Of a stretch of DNA of 22,111 bases, positions 1 to 4,767 are shown one piece after another. The position numbers and the translations under genes were made by a program. Positions within the stretch are counted from its first letter, which is position 1, and each line of letters begins with the position of its first letter. The stretch is taken from positions 1 through 22,111 of the IMG/VR virus record IMGVR_UViG_3300034418_004256; one strand, written 5' to 3'. The stretch is from a virus. The notes beneath the pieces were generated by a model. The model saw only the letters and a program-made list of their open reading frames with translations, was not told the origin of the DNA and searched no databases.

Positions 1-1097
1 TTGCCCTGACCAACCTTTGTTGGTGGGTTGCCGTCTTCGGCATCAACCATACCTCTTTCTGCCATGGTCATTTCGTTAAGAGTGGCGCTCACTGGTGGTT
101 TGAGTTTAGTAGCACCGACGATAACTTCATCACCTGCCTTACCAAAGACGGGTTTGTCGGCATCTGAGTCAAGAACGAGGACGAAACCTTCTTCACCTGT
201 TATAAGCGTAGTTGGTTCAATAATCTTCCCTGTTGCTCCGCGAAGACCGCCATCGACCACTCTAACTTGGTCGCCAACTTTGAAGCCTCGCATTTCGTTG
301 AGTTTTTGCTTTTGGTGGCGTGCTACCTCTTCGGCAAGAATTTGGCGCAAGCGTCCTTTGGTGATTTTTAACTTATTCATTTTGTTTTCCTCTAAGTTTT
401 TTTCTGGCTTTGCGCCAAGTGGTAGTGAGTAGCCCTGAACTGAGCCACCTGCCATTGTTGATATTTCTGATAGTTCTTCTGTAGCCTCGATAGCGTCTGC
501 CAAGTCAGCGGCATCAGCGAGTTCTGCGCCCAAACCAAGTGCTTGGGCAATCTCGCCAAAAGTCTGGCTCAAGAATACACCAAGCTCGCCAGATTTAATG
601 GCTGAGAGAAGACCCTCAAGGATTGACACAACGGTGTTATGTTTTTGTAGAGCTTTGAAGAAAGCCTTGCCTGACGCAATAAGCAAGCCTGCTACAATAG
701 CGTGAAAAATAATAACTGCTAAACGGTGGGCTTGTTTTTTGTCTTTAATGCGAAACACAAACTGCAAAACTTTTTCTATGCCGCCAATAAGAAGGTGGTG
801 TAGTTTGTCTGCCACTTTAATAATAGTGTTTGTTTCTACCTTTTCACCTTTTAGTCTGCTTTGGACTTTTGCCACAGCTTTACCGATAAGTTTTAGTAGG
901 GCTGGCATAGAAACAATAGAACCTGCAATGGCAAAACCAACTGCTTCGTTTTGCATCTCTGGCGCAAGCTTATCTTTATTTGCTTTGAGGTCTGCTTCCA
1001 GTTCGTCAAAAGCGTCGTCAAGTGCAGCAGCAACCAACTTTTCTTCTTCGGTTGCTTCCTTGAGTAGTGTTTCAATAATTAATTGTCTTGCTCTCAT
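1..1097 (-). CDS. Long head-module protein with C-terminal KOW domain (partial, runs off left edge)
   Basis: Function unknown; probably a virion or prohead protein. The frame stays open from an ATG at 1097 to the window edge (365 full codons, no stop), so the C-terminus is missing. The first ~160 residues are helical, with two hydrophobic stretches near residues 52-75 and 120-142, then an Ala/Glu-rich linker. From about residue 268 there is a KOW-like segment (GFKVGDQVRVV...GATGKII), a small beta fold that usually binds nucleic acid or protein partners. The start overlaps the upstream stop as TAATG. Residue 240 is an internal ATG with its own Shine-Dalgarno, so a shorter second product is likely (separate entry). 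The N-terminus contains LKE at residues 12-14, resembling a T4-type prohead-protease site. Being an ORF is certain; the role is inferred from context. Confidence 0.75.
   Translation of the reverse strand, partial: MRARQLIIETLLKEATEEEKLVAAALDDAFDELEADLKANKDKLAPEMQNEAVGFAIAGSIVSMPALLKLIGKAVAKVQSRLKGEKVETNTIIKVADKLHHLLIGGIEKVLQFVFRIKDKKQAHRLAVIIFHAIVAGLLIASGKAFFKALQKHNTVVSILEGLLSAIKSGELGVFLSQTFGEIAQALGLGAELADAADLADAIEATEELSEISTMAGGSVQGYSLPLGAKPEKNLEENKMNKLKITKGRLRQILAEEVARHQKQKLNEMRGFKVGDQVRVVDGGLRGATGKIIEPTTLITGEEGFVLVLDSDADKPVFGKAGDEVIVGATKLKPPVSATLNEMTMAERGMVDAEDGNPPTKVGQG
378..393 (-). promoter_or_regulatory. Internal ribosome binding site and in-frame ATG inside the KOW-domain gene
   Basis: On the minus strand AGAGGA (393-388) lies 7 nt before an ATG (380-378) in the same frame as the surrounding ORF, at residue 240. 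Initiation here would give a separate protein starting MNKLKITKGRLRQILAEE followed by the KOW domain. That peptide has the form of an independent N-terminus, matching the short basic/amphipathic starts of neighbouring head-module proteins. Nested in-frame starts are known in phage head genes; here it is a prediction. Confidence 0.5.
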
Positions 1098-1372
1098 TAA
1101 AGTATTCTCTCGATTTTTACTTTTAAGTTGCCAGTTCCTTTTAGAACTCTGTGCCACTCACCTTTTCTTACTAAATAGGTTTTATTTTCTTGTAAAGGCA
1201 TAGGAAGCTCGTTGTCGTATTGAATAAACCAACCGCCAGCTTCCAGCACTTCTATTACTCTTGTTTCGTCGTCTTGATGCCACTTTAAGTCTTCTGGGTC
1301 TACCAGTTGTGAAAAAACTCTAACAGAAGTCTTGTCTGCTATGTATTGTTCTTCAAACGGCAGTTCTTCCAT
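1097..1372 (-). CDS. Small cupin-like protein
   Basis: A 91-aa protein of unknown biochemical role. Two short motifs suggest a single small cupin barrel: WHQDDETR near residue 31 resembles cupin motif 1 and KGEWHRVLKGTGN near residue 71 resembles motif 2, with glycine- and aromatic-rich strands between. Similar small cupin-like proteins, as I recall, occur beside structural genes of marine T4-like phages. ATG at 1372 is chosen because it overlaps the upstream TGA as TGATG; in-frame TTG and GTG codons directly upstream are weaker choices. The stop overlaps the next gene as TAATG, so it is translationally coupled on both sides. Whether it binds metal or a sugar cannot be told. Confidence 0.65.
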   Translation of the reverse strand: MEELPFEEQYIADKTSVRVFSQLVDPEDLKWHQDDETRVIEVLEAGGWFIQYDNELPMPLQENKTYLVRKGEWHRVLKGTGNLKVKIERIL

Positions 1373-2556
1373 CACCAAAACCTGTATGACATTTTCTTCA
1401 TTCCCAGTTTTTCTGAGAAGCGTGGGATACGGCAGGACCAGTAGCCAGCAGATGTTTTAGGCTTGTCTTCCTCGCACTTGTGGCGAGCAACAAAAGACTT
1501 GCGTGCGCCGGGGTCATCAATGTTTGTTTTGAGACCGCCCTTTGCGTCACCAAAATTAACCTGTACTACGTTTCCTTTTTCGTTCTTAACATAAACTTTG
1601 TATTTCTTTGGACCAGATGAGCGAGTGGGCGAGTTTAGTTCTACGTCTCTTCCCCTGTACTCGGCTTCTTCCAACTCGTCTTCCATTATTGGCATAGGCA
1701 TGTCGAGTGGAACTTTCTCACCTTCGTAGTCTGCAAACTCACCAAGGTCAGAGCGAAGAATCTCTTCGTCCATGTCGGTGAATTCTAGCTTGCCTTCACG
1801 CCACATTGAGCGTTGGTCTCTTACATACTCATAATATTTGTCGGAAAAAGGACGGTAAGGGTTATCGGATAGGTCTGCTTTCTTGACATATGGAGCACTG
1901 TGAGAGCTATCGAGAGCTTCACGGAGTCTTTGTAGGATTTCATTTTTTGCTGCCTTTTTGCCCCAGCTTTCGCCGCGACCCTTTTCTTTGCAAGCGCCGG
2001 GGGTGGGACGACAAGATGGATACTTTGAACGCTTTTCACCTTCTTCTCTACCGCAGGGCTTGCACTTTGTACGACCTGTTTTCTTGTCTTTGCGACAAGT
2101 GTTACAGTCTACCCAACCACCTGTTTTACCGGGAGCACCTTTTCGACCAAACCAATCACGGAGAGAAGATTCTTTTGAGGACTCTGTGCCTGCTTTTTTC
2201 TTTTCTTCGTCGAGTTCTTCTTCTTTGAGGTCTTTCCAAATCTTTCCTTGGCGGCACTTTACAATGGCACCAGAGGCGTAAGCTGATGGAAACACATCGT
2301 ACTTGCGCTTTGCAATCTTGTAGCAACGGTCTTTCTTTGTTTCTTCCTCAGAAAGAAAAGCCATAACCTCTTCACGGATTATTTCTTTAATGTAGCCACC
2401 TTCGGCGGCGTAGAGCGCTTTTTTGTATTGCTCTGGGTCTTTGGTGCAGCCAACTTTCTCACCCTGTGAACCGTCACGTTTCTTTTTGTAGATAACGTGT
2501 GTTCCAGCGTCTCCGTCAGCCTGCTCGCACTTTTGTTTTCTTATTAGGTATGGCAT
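1372..2556 (-). CDS. Four-module Cys-rich basic head-module protein
   Basis: A 394-aa protein assembled from short modules that I recognise as recurring separately in marine phage proteins, though without an assigned function. Residues 1-53 are a basic module with two Cys. Residues 55-72 form an amphipathic helix ending FLSEEE. Residues 78-101 hold the CYK...KYDVFPSAYASGAIVKC motif. Residues 131-202 hold a DWFGRKG start, CxxC at 151/154, CKPC at 165/168 and SCRPTP near 181. Residues 318-375 hold KVYVKNEKGNV, VNFGD, RHKC and YWSC. A long acidic linker (260-300) separates the last two. The ATG at 2556 is preferred to one 24 codons upstream because it falls 4 nt after the preceding gene's stop. 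The paired cysteines suggest zinc or disulfide modules. A prohead or virion role is inferred from its neighbours. Confidence 0.7.
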   Translation of the reverse strand: MPYLIRKQKCEQADGDAGTHVIYKKKRDGSQGEKVGCTKDPEQYKKALYAAEGGYIKEIIREEVMAFLSEEETKKDRCYKIAKRKYDVFPSAYASGAIVKCRQGKIWKDLKEEELDEEKKKAGTESSKESSLRDWFGRKGAPGKTGGWVDCNTCRKDKKTGRTKCKPCGREEGEKRSKYPSCRPTPGACKEKGRGESWGKKAAKNEILQRLREALDSSHSAPYVKKADLSDNPYRPFSDKYYEYVRDQRSMWREGKLEFTDMDEEILRSDLGEFADYEGEKVPLDMPMPIMEDELEEAEYRGRDVELNSPTRSSGPKKYKVYVKNEKGNVVQVNFGDAKGGLKTNIDDPGARKSFVARHKCEEDKPKTSAGYWSCRIPRFSEKLGMKKMSYRFW

Positions 2557-2560
2557 TTTA

Positions 2561-3040
2561 TTATCTCGTGAATTTTTCTTCTTGACCTTTGAGAGTAACA
2601 TCGTAGGTCTTTTGTCTGCCACCACCAAACGAGTCTGTGCGGAAGTCGTCCTTACGCATCATGGTGATAATGACTAGACGGTCTGGACCCTTTCTCATAT
2701 CCAACTTTGCTACTAAGTTGAGCGCAGGTTGGTTGCCCTGTTCGGCACGGACGTGAAAGGCTTCGTCATTAGATAACTCGCCATTTGCAAAGTCGTCCAG
2801 TATTTGTGGTAAGGCGCGGTCAAGTGCTTTGATAACAGAGTCTCGGCTGATTCTGCCAAGGCGTTGTCCACCTGAGCCACGGGCTCCAACATGTCGTCTC
2901 GACCTTTCCTCAGCGTGTTTAGAGGCAATAATTTTTAAGTTATCGAGGTCAACGGTATAAACGTCGCCCTCAAATGAATCATATTGCGTTTCTTCTGCTA
3001 GGAAATGTTGGAAACGAGAAAGTATATCCTTGTACTGCAT
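2561..3040 (-). CDS. Hypothetical head-module protein with putative capsid-targeting N-terminus
   Basis: A 159-aa protein of no recognised family. The N-terminus MQYKDILSRFQHFLAEE has the form of a T4 capsid-targeting peptide, with an LAE site at residues 14-16. The rest is an alpha/beta domain: SKHAEERSRRH (near residue 39), a helix with ISRDSVIKALDRALPQI, then strands NLVAKLDM and DRLVIITMMRKDDF. The helix-then-strand order with an early His/Arg pair recalls RelE/BrnT-like small folds, but too weakly to assign. There is no clear Shine-Dalgarno before the ATG. The 5 nt immediately upstream belong to a CACTA-TT-TAGTG inverted repeat. No other Met is available to replace this start. It ends 4 nt before the next gene. 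Confidence 0.65.
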   Translation of the reverse strand: MQYKDILSRFQHFLAEETQYDSFEGDVYTVDLDNLKIIASKHAEERSRRHVGARGSGGQRLGRISRDSVIKALDRALPQILDDFANGELSNDEAFHVRAEQGNQPALNLVAKLDMRKGPDRLVIITMMRKDDFRTDSFGGGRQKTYDVTLKGQEEKFTR

Positions 3041-3053
3041 ACACTAAATAGTG

Positions 3054-3338
3054 CTAAAAGTTAGCAATGTCTTTGCCGTTGTAACCTTTTACAACGAGGT
3101 CTTCTGGAAAGTTTTTCACGAATTTACGGGCTGCGTCGCGGTCTTTAAAAAACTGTGAGAACACAAGGATGGTGTGGTTTTTGTGAAAGCCCTCGGCAAT
3201 AATGCTCCAATCTTTGAGCAGGGTTGTGATGCGTCGTTTGCTTTGTGGTGTTAGACCGTCTGCTTGCAGATGAAAACGAAGTGTTTTGTCATCGTGCGGA
3301 ACTTGCCAAAAGGTCATCTTTGCTTTCTTCTTTGCCAT
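3054..3338 (-). CDS. Hypothetical small basic protein
   Basis: A 94-aa protein I do not recognise. It begins with a Lys-rich MAKKKAK, followed by a compact alpha/beta pattern: FWQVP, LRFHLQADGLTPQSKRRI, a helix, IIAEGFHKNHTILVFSQF, then a helix DRDAARKFVKNF and LVVKGYNG. The repeated alternation suggests a small ferredoxin-like or swapped-strand fold, with no catalytic signature. A GGAG lies 7 nt before the ATG. Its first 50 nt overlap the end of the upstream gene in another frame, an unusually long overlap for this window. Both frames are open, and the strong ribosome binding site supports this start. Confidence 0.55.
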   Translation of the reverse strand: MAKKKAKMTFWQVPHDDKTLRFHLQADGLTPQSKRRITTLLKDWSIIAEGFHKNHTILVFSQFFKDRDAARKFVKNFPEDLVVKGYNGKDIANF

Positions 3339-3570
3339 TGTTGAACTCCACTGTTAGTTTTCCGTCTTGGAAGTGAATATTAACCTCATTTTTAACATAT
3401 TTGTTCACTAATGTCAAGAGTTTTACGATACTTTCTTCGGGAAGGTCTTTTTCCTGAATGGTGTTCATTACTCTGTTGACGACAAAAGCCTTTTCTGCGA
3501 ATACAACATTGTCTTCTGCGTGAAGAGAGTTTGTCTCACACAGGAAGTTCATAAGTGATTGTTTTTTCAT
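3289..3570 (-). CDS. Hypothetical small protein coupled to the membrane HExxH gene
   Basis: A 93-aa protein of unknown function, mostly helical in its first 60 residues, then a hairpin-like VNIHFQDGKLTVEFNNG and an acidic/serine tail. Its ATG overlaps the upstream TGA as ATGA, the usual sign of translational coupling to the membrane metallopeptidase-like gene, so the two may act together. The last 50 nt overlap the following gene. I see no transmembrane segment, motif or signal peptide. Confidence 0.55.
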   Translation of the reverse strand: MKKQSLMNFLCETNSLHAEDNVVFAEKAFVVNRVMNTIQEKDLPEESIVKLLTLVNKYVKNEVNIHFQDGKLTVEFNNGKEESKDDLLASSAR

Positions 3571-4196
3571 ATTTTAAGTGCGCTTTTAATTTCTTTTTCG
3601 TAGTCTTTGAGATCGTCTTCTTTAATACGTTGTAGTTCTTCTGTAAACTTTCTTTTAAGAAACTTCTCGGCTGGAAGCATCCAGTAGTAGCTGGAAGATG
3701 TGAATTGCTTTGTGAGCCAATCAGGGTTGGGCTCTTGTTGTAACAACCACCAGCGGACTGCTATGCTTACTGTGTATGCTCTGAACTCAAACCAAGCTCG
3801 GAATGGTGCGGGGATAGGAGCAGCGCATAGAATAAAAAATACCATCCACCACTTCCAAAAAGCGAGAAGGGCAAGTGGTGCTAGTATCTGTGGGAATAAG
3901 TATAAAAACTTAAAAAGTGGTCCAAAAGTTTTGCCGTCCTTCATATGAACCCACTCGTGTGCCATCACCTCGCAAGCTGTATAAGGTGCGTTTGGCTTCC
4001 ATGGTATTTGAGGAACATAAACTTTTGCGCCGATAACTGTGATGTATCGGGTCGTAAACTCTTTGTTGAAAAACAAGAGTTTGGAGAGGCATTTCATCAA
4101 GAAGGAGTTGCGCTTATCGATATACTCAAAAGTAGGGAACTCTTCTTTAATGTGCCTCTCCAAACCCATGCGTTTGAGAGTCAATATTTCTTTCAT
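3567..4196 (-). CDS. Membrane-associated HExxH metallopeptidase-like protein
   Basis: A 209-aa protein with HEWVH at residues 80-84, the HExxH zinc signature in which Glu81 would be catalytic. A candidate third ligand is Glu137 in FEFRAY, about 53 residues later, as in gluzincin-type peptidases. Between them, residues ~94-127 are strongly hydrophobic (one long or two short membrane segments) with Trp clusters. The first 60 residues are soluble and basic. The C-terminal 40 are charged and helical. It sits between a prohead-core-like gene and small head-module genes, and follows the upstream stop by 4 nt without a strong Shine-Dalgarno, so it may depend on coupling. Possible roles include peptidase action at the membrane, cell-wall processing, or a non-catalytic scaffold. 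The motif is clear; the substrate is unknown. Confidence 0.6.
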   Translation of the reverse strand: MKEILTLKRMGLERHIKEEFPTFEYIDKRNSFLMKCLSKLLFFNKEFTTRYITVIGAKVYVPQIPWKPNAPYTACEVMAHEWVHMKDGKTFGPLFKFLYLFPQILAPLALLAFWKWWMVFFILCAAPIPAPFRAWFEFRAYTVSIAVRWWLLQQEPNPDWLTKQFTSSSYYWMLPAEKFLKRKFTEELQRIKEDDLKDYEKEIKSALKI

Positions 4197-4200
4197 TGGT

Positions 4201-4767
4201 TTAGCGAAGCTTGCTTGCTAGTCTGCGCTTGAGGCTTTCCTTTACGAGTCTCTTTTGAACTCTCTTTGTTACCTCGTTGACAATCTCTTCAAGGGCTGCT
4301 TCTTCCATCATGTCGTCAACCATGTCTTCTTCGGCGTCAGCCATGTCGTCAGCGGCTGCTTCCATGTCGCCCTCTTCGGCGTCCATTTCGGCGTCAGCCA
4401 TTTCTTCACCGGCTTCTTCTTCAGCCTCTACTTCGACAGCAACACCTGTCTCTTCTTCGATGGCAGCAGCGATGGCGTCAACAAGGGCTTCTACCTTGTC
4501 TTCCATGGCAGCTTCTGGCTCTTCAGCGGCTTCTTCCATGTGCTCACCTTCTTCCATCTTGTCGCCATGCTCGGCTTCTGTCATGGTGTCTGCATCGGCA
4601 CCGGCTTCACCAGCGTCGTCATGCATTTCTTCTTCTAGTTTCTCGCCGCGCTCTTCGTCCATCTTCTCGCCACGCTTCTCACCTTCGGTGAGGACTTCGG
4701 CATCAGTGGAAACGTAGCCACGCCAGGATTCAAGAAGAACCTTCATGTCTTTGTTATCTCTTTTCAT
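4201..4767 (-). CDS. Acidic prohead-core / scaffold-like protein
   Basis: A 188-aa, extremely acidic low-complexity protein (Glu/Asp/Ala/Met-rich from ~35 to ~160) with a basic helical C-terminus (VTKRVQKRLVKESLKRR). This matches what is known of small T4-like prohead-core proteins such as gp67: acidic, removed by protease during head maturation, with poor sequence conservation. The N-terminus has MKVLLESWRGYV, containing LLE at 11-13 as a possible prohead-protease site. A repeated EKRGEKMDEERGEK-type pattern occurs near residues 30-45. AAGGAGAG precedes the first ATG. An ACTATTTAT motif lies 33 nt upstream, so it probably heads the leftmost virion transcript. Function is inferred from composition, not homology. 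Confidence 0.6.
   Translation of the reverse strand: MKRDNKDMKVLLESWRGYVSTDAEVLTEGEKRGEKMDEERGEKLEEEMHDDAGEAGADADTMTEAEHGDKMEEGEHMEEAAEEPEAAMEDKVEALVDAIAAAIEEETGVAVEVEAEEEAGEEMADAEMDAEEGDMEAAADDMADAEEDMVDDMMEEAALEEIVNEVTKRVQKRLVKESLKRRLASKLR

What the first reader, a model, noticed from the sequence alone, without database searches (positions are those of the whole stretch)
1..4767. A family of putative capsid-targeting N-termini on head-module proteins
Several proteins in this module carry a short basic/amphipathic leader ending in an (L/I)xE site, as in T4 internal head proteins cut by gp21: LKE (365-aa ORF, residues 12-14), LAE (nested start, 15-17), LAE (159 aa, 14-16), LLE (acidic core, 11-13) and LSE (394 aa, 68-70, internal). 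This would mean these otherwise unknown proteins are packaged inside the prohead and matured by protease.
Basis: partly seen in the sequence, partly recalled or inferred. Interest (0 to 1): 0.63.

Follow-up and report, generated by a model that had tools for sequence, protein, structure and literature searches.

The report
Capsid-import leaders on phage cargo proteins
Several proteins in this marine phage fragment belong to a large family of otherwise unrelated phage proteins that share short, swappable front-end tags, which most likely pull them into the virus head and are then cut off so that the proteins can be injected into the host cell; this would let one predict a phage's injected cargo from sequence alone.

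Summary
Comparison with relatives supports the idea far better. The 159-aa and acidic 188-aa proteins carry a leader of the type MK-L-L-E-N-W-x-x-F-L-x-E. It heads about 200 distinct ORFs in phage contigs, with 109 mutually unrelated downstream parts, 0 hits in shuffled N-termini and 2 internal hits. The internal LSE of the 394-aa protein ends a second leader type, which is N-terminal in the homologous protein of Flavobacterium phage immuto. The lineage is T4-like: gp23 capsid protein in relative G003, and a gp21-type prohead protease in 17 of 20 records sharing it. Downstream domains include ADP-ribosyltransferase, SAM lyase, NUDIX and kinases. Two of the five sites sit mid-leader, and the 365-aa N-terminus is the weakest case. 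Most likely these are T4-style capsid-targeting leaders, removed by the prohead protease, on injected cargo. Packaging and cleavage are inferred, not shown.

The parts
2561..3040 (-). 159-aa cargo protein with a class-A-type leader
   Evidence: six orthologs; only a sub-threshold Pfam Hcp hit; AF2 mean pLDDT 62 and no significant PDB fold
2993..3040 (-). leader MQYKDILSRFQHFLAE of the 159-aa protein (LAE 14-16 at its end)
   Evidence: I6 L7 S8 R9 F10 F13 L14 E16 invariant in six orthologs; regex [IL]L..F..FL.E at no internal position of 552,433; helix 3-15 in the AF2 model, low confidence; poor class-A HMM score
4201..4767 (-). acidic 188-aa protein (net charge -44), candidate prohead-core component
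   Evidence: orthologs in L001, L002, L006, L007, L008 with variable acidic repeats; charge
   Evidence: class-A HMM i-E 0.017; L006 ortholog MKVLLESWRGYVNEA
1372..2556 (-). 394-aa mosaic protein: short N-terminal domain, internal class-B leader, gp084-like domain, gp099-like C-terminal part
   Evidence: PHROG hits 727 and 7595; immuto gp084 covers 55-200 (E 2e-43); immuto gp099 covers 229-394 (E 2e-48)
2347..2394 (-). internal class-B leader YIKEIIREEVMAFLSE (residues 55-70; LSE 68-70 at its end)
   Evidence: class-B HMM i-E 0.019; N-terminal in immuto gp084; same junction behind a different N-terminal domain in L008
3..1097 (-). 365-aa ORF, 5' part of what is a 593-aa ORF in L001; hydrophobic stretches, then a KOW-like region
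   Evidence: KOW hit below cut-off; homolog directly 3' of the capsid gene in Microcystis phage Mel-JY01 (E 2e-17)
1056..1097 (-). putative leader MRARQLIIETLLKE of the 365-aa ORF (LKE 12-14 at its end)
   Evidence: IIE(T/S)LLKEA conserved in four orthologs; no HMM support; immuto homolog gp095 starts with the class-B-like MKKSELVKLIKEEL
   Evidence: class-B HMM i-E 0.6, not significant; AGAGGA upstream of the nested ATG

Best explanation
These are cargo and core proteins of a T4-like phage lineage. Short N-terminal amphipathic leaders of at least two types (A: MK-L-L-E-N-W-x-x-F-L-x-E; B: MKxTKxxLKxIIKEELxxxLxE) bring them into the prohead with the scaffold core. The gp21-type protease then cuts after the terminal L-x-E. 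The freed proteins stay in the mature head and enter the host with the DNA, where many would act as early effectors. In the 394-aa protein a class-B leader sits at a domain border inside a fused protein and would be an internal processing site. Shown: the leaders, their N-terminal placement, the diversity of the attached parts, their occurrence in phages with gp23 and the protease. Inferred: packaging, cutting, injection, effector function.
For: Lineage: gp23 capsid protein in relative G003 (PF07068 E 4e-75); Peptidase_S77 in 17 of 20 records sharing it. Class A: 207 N-terminal hits in 2754 unique ORFs, 0 in shuffled N-termini, 2 internal, 109 unrelated cargo clusters; class B: 70 hits, 0 shuffled, 5 internal, 59 clusters; both types in 30 loci. 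82 of 84 matches of a pattern that demands no start codon have a start codon within 8 codons upstream. 10 of 11 records of 112 kb or more fetched by that pattern carry both gp23 and the protease, with the matched leader on the same strand. In the 181-kb record G028 nearly all leader genes lie at 3.7-18.8 kb. In L021 five class-B ORFs lie around the protease, upstream of scaffold and capsid genes. The capsid prodomain ends MARLLENQAKELLRE followed by A or S, resembling a class-A leader. At the terminal site P2 varies while P1 is mostly E, also in leaders free of the fetching pattern (44 of 62). T4 ipII and ipIII start MKTYQEFIAE, fetched here; gp21 cuts after L/I-X-E (PMC9026906). Cargo includes ART-PolyVal, SAM lyase, NUDIX, Zeta-type kinase, HAD and SET domains, in line with effectors packaged and injected by phages (PMC5512222; PMC7824862). 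The same domain sits behind a class-A leader in L185 and a class-B leader in the window and immuto.
Against: No proteomics or cleavage data for this lineage. The window and its closest relatives are fragments in which no protease was found. Residues after the site are often E or D, unlike A or S in the capsid protein. Neither HMM matches T4 leaders significantly. Most class-A hits come from loci fetched by a class-A pattern: 14 of 207 are pattern-independent, and 72 of the other 193 do not match the pattern. The final class-A profile does not recognise the window's 159-aa leader. The acidic protein's terminal site is degenerate in the window. There was no random set of large contigs as a control for the leader-protease association.
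Confidence: 0.7

Rival explanations
1. Targeting without trimming: the leaders dock proteins onto the core or scaffold, but removal is partial or absent, and the terminal LxE is part of the docking helix. The acidic protein would simply be a core component that is degraded or expelled during maturation.
For: The acidic protein has YVST (window) or YIAD (L007) at the terminal position. In T4 IPIII an Asp at position 10 blocks processing but still allows targeting (PMC9026906). E or D often follows the site.
Against: E dominates the terminal position while P2 is free; L-x-E ends both leader types; a gp21-type protease is present in the lineage.
Confidence: 0.15
2. The leader is a sorting or docking tag for something other than the capsid, for example another virion part such as the baseplate, or a replication compartment, shared by late proteins.
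For: Nothing measured excludes another address; in G028 and G036 the leader genes form an island away from the capsid genes.
Against: Class-B ORFs lie beside the protease in L021; the capsid prodomain resembles a class-A leader; L-x-E endings match the gp21 cleavage rule; the 365-aa homolog is next to the capsid gene in Mel-JY01.
Confidence: 0.1
3. The (L/I)xE sites are chance matches in charged amphipathic helices and the window's proteins are unrelated to head targeting.
For: The bare motif is at background frequency; no HMM support for the 365-aa N-terminus or the nested segment; the 159-aa leader is not recognised by the class-A profile.
Against: Leader families with no hits in shuffled controls; invariance of the 159-aa leader in its orthologs; the internal 394-aa segment is an N-terminal leader in immuto.
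Confidence: 0.05

Closest known systems
T4 capsid-targeting sequences (ipI, ipII, ipIII, alt) cut by gp21
   Same: Short N-terminal leader, near-identical on different proteins (ipII and ipIII both MKTYQEFIAE), ending in L/I-x-E; gp21-type protease and gp23-type capsid protein in the lineage.
   Different: Different consensus and length with no significant HMM match; two leader types; well over a hundred cargo clusters instead of a few; leader-gene islands in large records; one leader inside a fused protein; processing untested.
Inner-head propeptides of giant phages (SPN3US gp53/gp54, phiKZ inner-body proteins)
   Same: Ejected head proteins with N-terminal propeptides cut after Glu; identical N-termini on otherwise diverged paralogs (PMC5694885).
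   Different: There the motif is A-x-E or S-x-E and most propeptides are long; here L-x-E and about 14-22 residues, in phages with gp23 and Peptidase_S77.
Polyvalent proteins of phages and conjugative elements (PMC5512222)
   Same: Overlapping domain set (ART, GNAT, NUDIX) and the proposed role as co-delivered effectors.
   Different: There many domains in one long polypeptide; here mostly one domain per gene behind a shared leader, with fusions such as the 394-aa protein and the NUDIX-kinase.

Membership tests
T4-type capsid-targeting sequence | shared N-terminal leader on otherwise unrelated proteins | tested here: met
   for the family; in the window: 188 aa by HMM, 159 aa by regex and ortholog conservation, 394 aa internally
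T4-type capsid-targeting sequence | leader ends in a gp21-type L/I-x-E site | tested here: met
   P1 is E in 142 of 158 distinct class-A leaders and in 44 of 62 free of the fetching pattern; in the window met for 159 aa, 394 aa internal and 365 aa, degenerate in 188 aa
T4-type capsid-targeting sequence | prohead protease of the gp21 family in the same phage | tested here: inconclusive
   present in 17 of 20 lineage records and 10 of 11 large leader-bearing records; not found in the window or its closest relatives, which are fragments
T4-type capsid-targeting sequence | sequence homology to the T4 leaders | tested here: not met
   no significant match of either HMM to T4 N-termini; sequences this short may not show it
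T4-type capsid-targeting sequence | leader-dependent incorporation into the prohead and proteolytic removal | not testable with these tools
   needs virion proteomics or reporter fusions
Polyvalent proteins | long proteins with several effector domains | tested here: not met
   the L009 cargoes are mostly single-domain or without known domain; fusions exist (394 aa; NUDIX-kinase)

The most novel reading that the evidence does not exclude
Marine T4-like phages use a standardised, exchangeable capsid-import code (at least two leader types) to load a large, fast-changing set of injected effectors, including a SAM lyase and an ADP-ribosyltransferase, encoded in dedicated cargo islands; some leaders also act as internal processing sites in fused cargo.
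Probability: 0.55. Interest if true: 0.78.

Novelty: new variant of a known kind. Interest (0 to 1): 0.66.

Why it matters
If right, the leader is a sequence-readable label for 'packaged in the head and injected'. It would turn a large pool of hypothetical phage proteins into testable early effectors and anti-defence candidates, and make part of the content of virions predictable from metagenomes. That T4-like phages may use such leaders to package varied proteins has been suggested before (PMC9026906). A search of the held open-access papers for leader strings found no description of these leaders, and a 20-residue class-A query found no convincing hit in cultured phage records, although so short a query is near the limit of that search.

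Tried and rejected
Bare (L/I)xE as evidence: rejected, chance level. Domain identification of the 159-aa protein by Pfam, PHROGs and PDB fold: only sub-threshold hits and no significant fold; an RNase-like idea from its KHAEER pattern is recollection only and was not confirmed. Final class-A HMM on the window's 159-aa leader: poor score, so regex and ortholog conservation are used instead. HMM link to T4 leaders: none. Hydrophobic moment as a discriminator: class A is higher on average, but the window's four N-termini are not extreme (19th to 86th percentile of controls). Relatives of the 188-aa protein in bacterial and archaeal genomes: none confirmed. Papers on virion proteomics of immuto or Mel-JY01: none found. 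Counting class-A hits without regard to how loci were fetched: corrected.

Full report
Observation. The window is a whole 22,111-base virus record, classed as a linear fragment. The bare [LI]xE motif is uninformative: it occurs in 22.7% of internal 20-mers of the window's proteins and in the first 20 residues of 9 of 32 picked ORFs.

Lineage. Relatives of the window's proteins were found in seven contigs. One of them, G003, carries a gp23-type capsid protein (E 4e-75), tail sheath, tail tube and baseplate proteins. Of 20 records sharing that capsid protein, 17 carry a T4 gp21-type protease. In L021, the third-best capsid match, five small ORFs with near-identical starts (class B, e.g. MKKEQLKQIIKEELQAMLNE) lie around the protease, upstream of scaffold and capsid genes.

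Leader A. Relative G001 holds a run of about nine different genes starting MKxLLENWKxFLNE or a variant of it. An HMM from eight of these found 16 N-termini among 1576 ORFs (8 of them the seeds) and none in shuffled, reversed or internal sequence. Iteration over 2754 unique ORFs gave 207 N-terminal hits, 0 in shuffled and 2 in internal sequence, with 109 unrelated cargo clusters. Most of those loci were fetched by the pattern itself: 14 hits are in other loci, and 72 of the remaining 193 do not match the pattern. An alignment of 105 cargo representatives keeps only leader columns.

Leader B. The class-B HMM gave 70 N-terminal hits in 59 cargo clusters and recognises the internal junction of the 394-aa protein (i-E 0.019). 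Thirty loci hold both types.

The window's proteins. 159 aa: leader residues I6, L7, S8, R9, F10, F13, L14 and E16 are invariant in six orthologs; the specific regex never occurs internally, but the class-A profile scores this leader poorly, F standing in place of W. 188 aa: leader MKVLLESW, HMM i-E 0.017; the terminal site is degenerate here but reads YVNE in L006. 394 aa: a mosaic; the internal leader is N-terminal in immuto gp084, the C-terminal part is a separate gene there, gp099, and L185 has the same middle domain behind a class-A leader. 365 aa: weakest by sequence, but its homolog lies directly 3' of the capsid gene in Mel-JY01, and its immuto homolog gp095 starts with a class-B-like MKKSELVKLIKEEL.

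Processing. Capsid proteins of the lineage end their prodomain in LLENQAKELLRE followed mostly by S or A (54 distinct sequences); this lies near the T4 gp23 cut in the alignment, though the alignment does not fix the exact residue. In class-A leaders free of the fetching pattern, P1 is E in 44 of 62 while P2 varies. T4 ipII and ipIII, fetched here, start MKTYQEFIAE; gp21 is reported to cut after L/I-X-E, with targeting and processing residues separable (PMC9026906).

Cargo and arrangement. Pfam finds ART-PolyVal, SAM lyase, NUDIX, Zeta-type kinase, HAD, SET and cytidylyltransferase-like domains; most cargoes have no hit. In the 181-kb record G028 nearly all leader genes lie between 3.7 and 18.8 kb, away from the protease (103.8 kb) and capsid (115 kb) genes. 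Ten of eleven class-A records of 112 kb or more have both gp23 and the protease. No random set of large contigs was available as a control for that association.

Conclusion. The idea of capsid-targeting leaders is probably right for the 159-aa, 188-aa and 394-aa proteins and plausible for the 365-aa protein, but for better reasons than the tripeptide. Incorporation, cutting, injection and effector function remain to be shown.

Noticed in passing
L113:11675-12139 (+), L111:25061-25456 (+); scaffold C-termini, e.g. L018:3612-4676 (-), L021:3578-4627 (+): Seventy-three motif matches lie at protein C-termini of the form RMxxLAGI/L, those inspected mostly at the scaffold position; two immuto proteins carry the same string in an N-terminal leader (MKKQILSEQFRRMQKLAGIITES), a possible third targeting code that copies the scaffold C-terminus.
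   Followed up: partly
L111:1803-2318, L113:3806-4354, L113:17631-18632, L113:18632-18931 (all +): Immuto has another repeated N-terminus, MENFDLKKFLVENKLTxNSKLL and close variants, on four different proteins.
   Followed up: no
window 3567-4196 (-): 209-aa protein with hydrophobic segments and a HEWVH motif, possibly a membrane metalloprotease; no Pfam or PHROG hit.
   Followed up: no
L009:8823-9377 (-): S-adenosylmethionine lyase domain (PF23780, 1.3e-9) behind a class-A leader: a candidate injected anti-restriction protein.
   Followed up: partly
L001:13400-14971 (+), L008:14598-16172 (+): GroEL-like chaperonin gene close to the 593-aa/504-aa orthologs of the window's 365-aa ORF, identified by eye from the translation.
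   Followed up: no
L008:10485-11783 (+): The 394-aa ortholog in L008 has a different N-terminal domain before the same junction leader, a domain swap at the leader.
   Followed up: partly
L009:2367-3482 (-): NUDIX domain fused to a Zeta-toxin-like kinase behind a short class-A-like start MKKWKQFLKEA.
   Followed up: no
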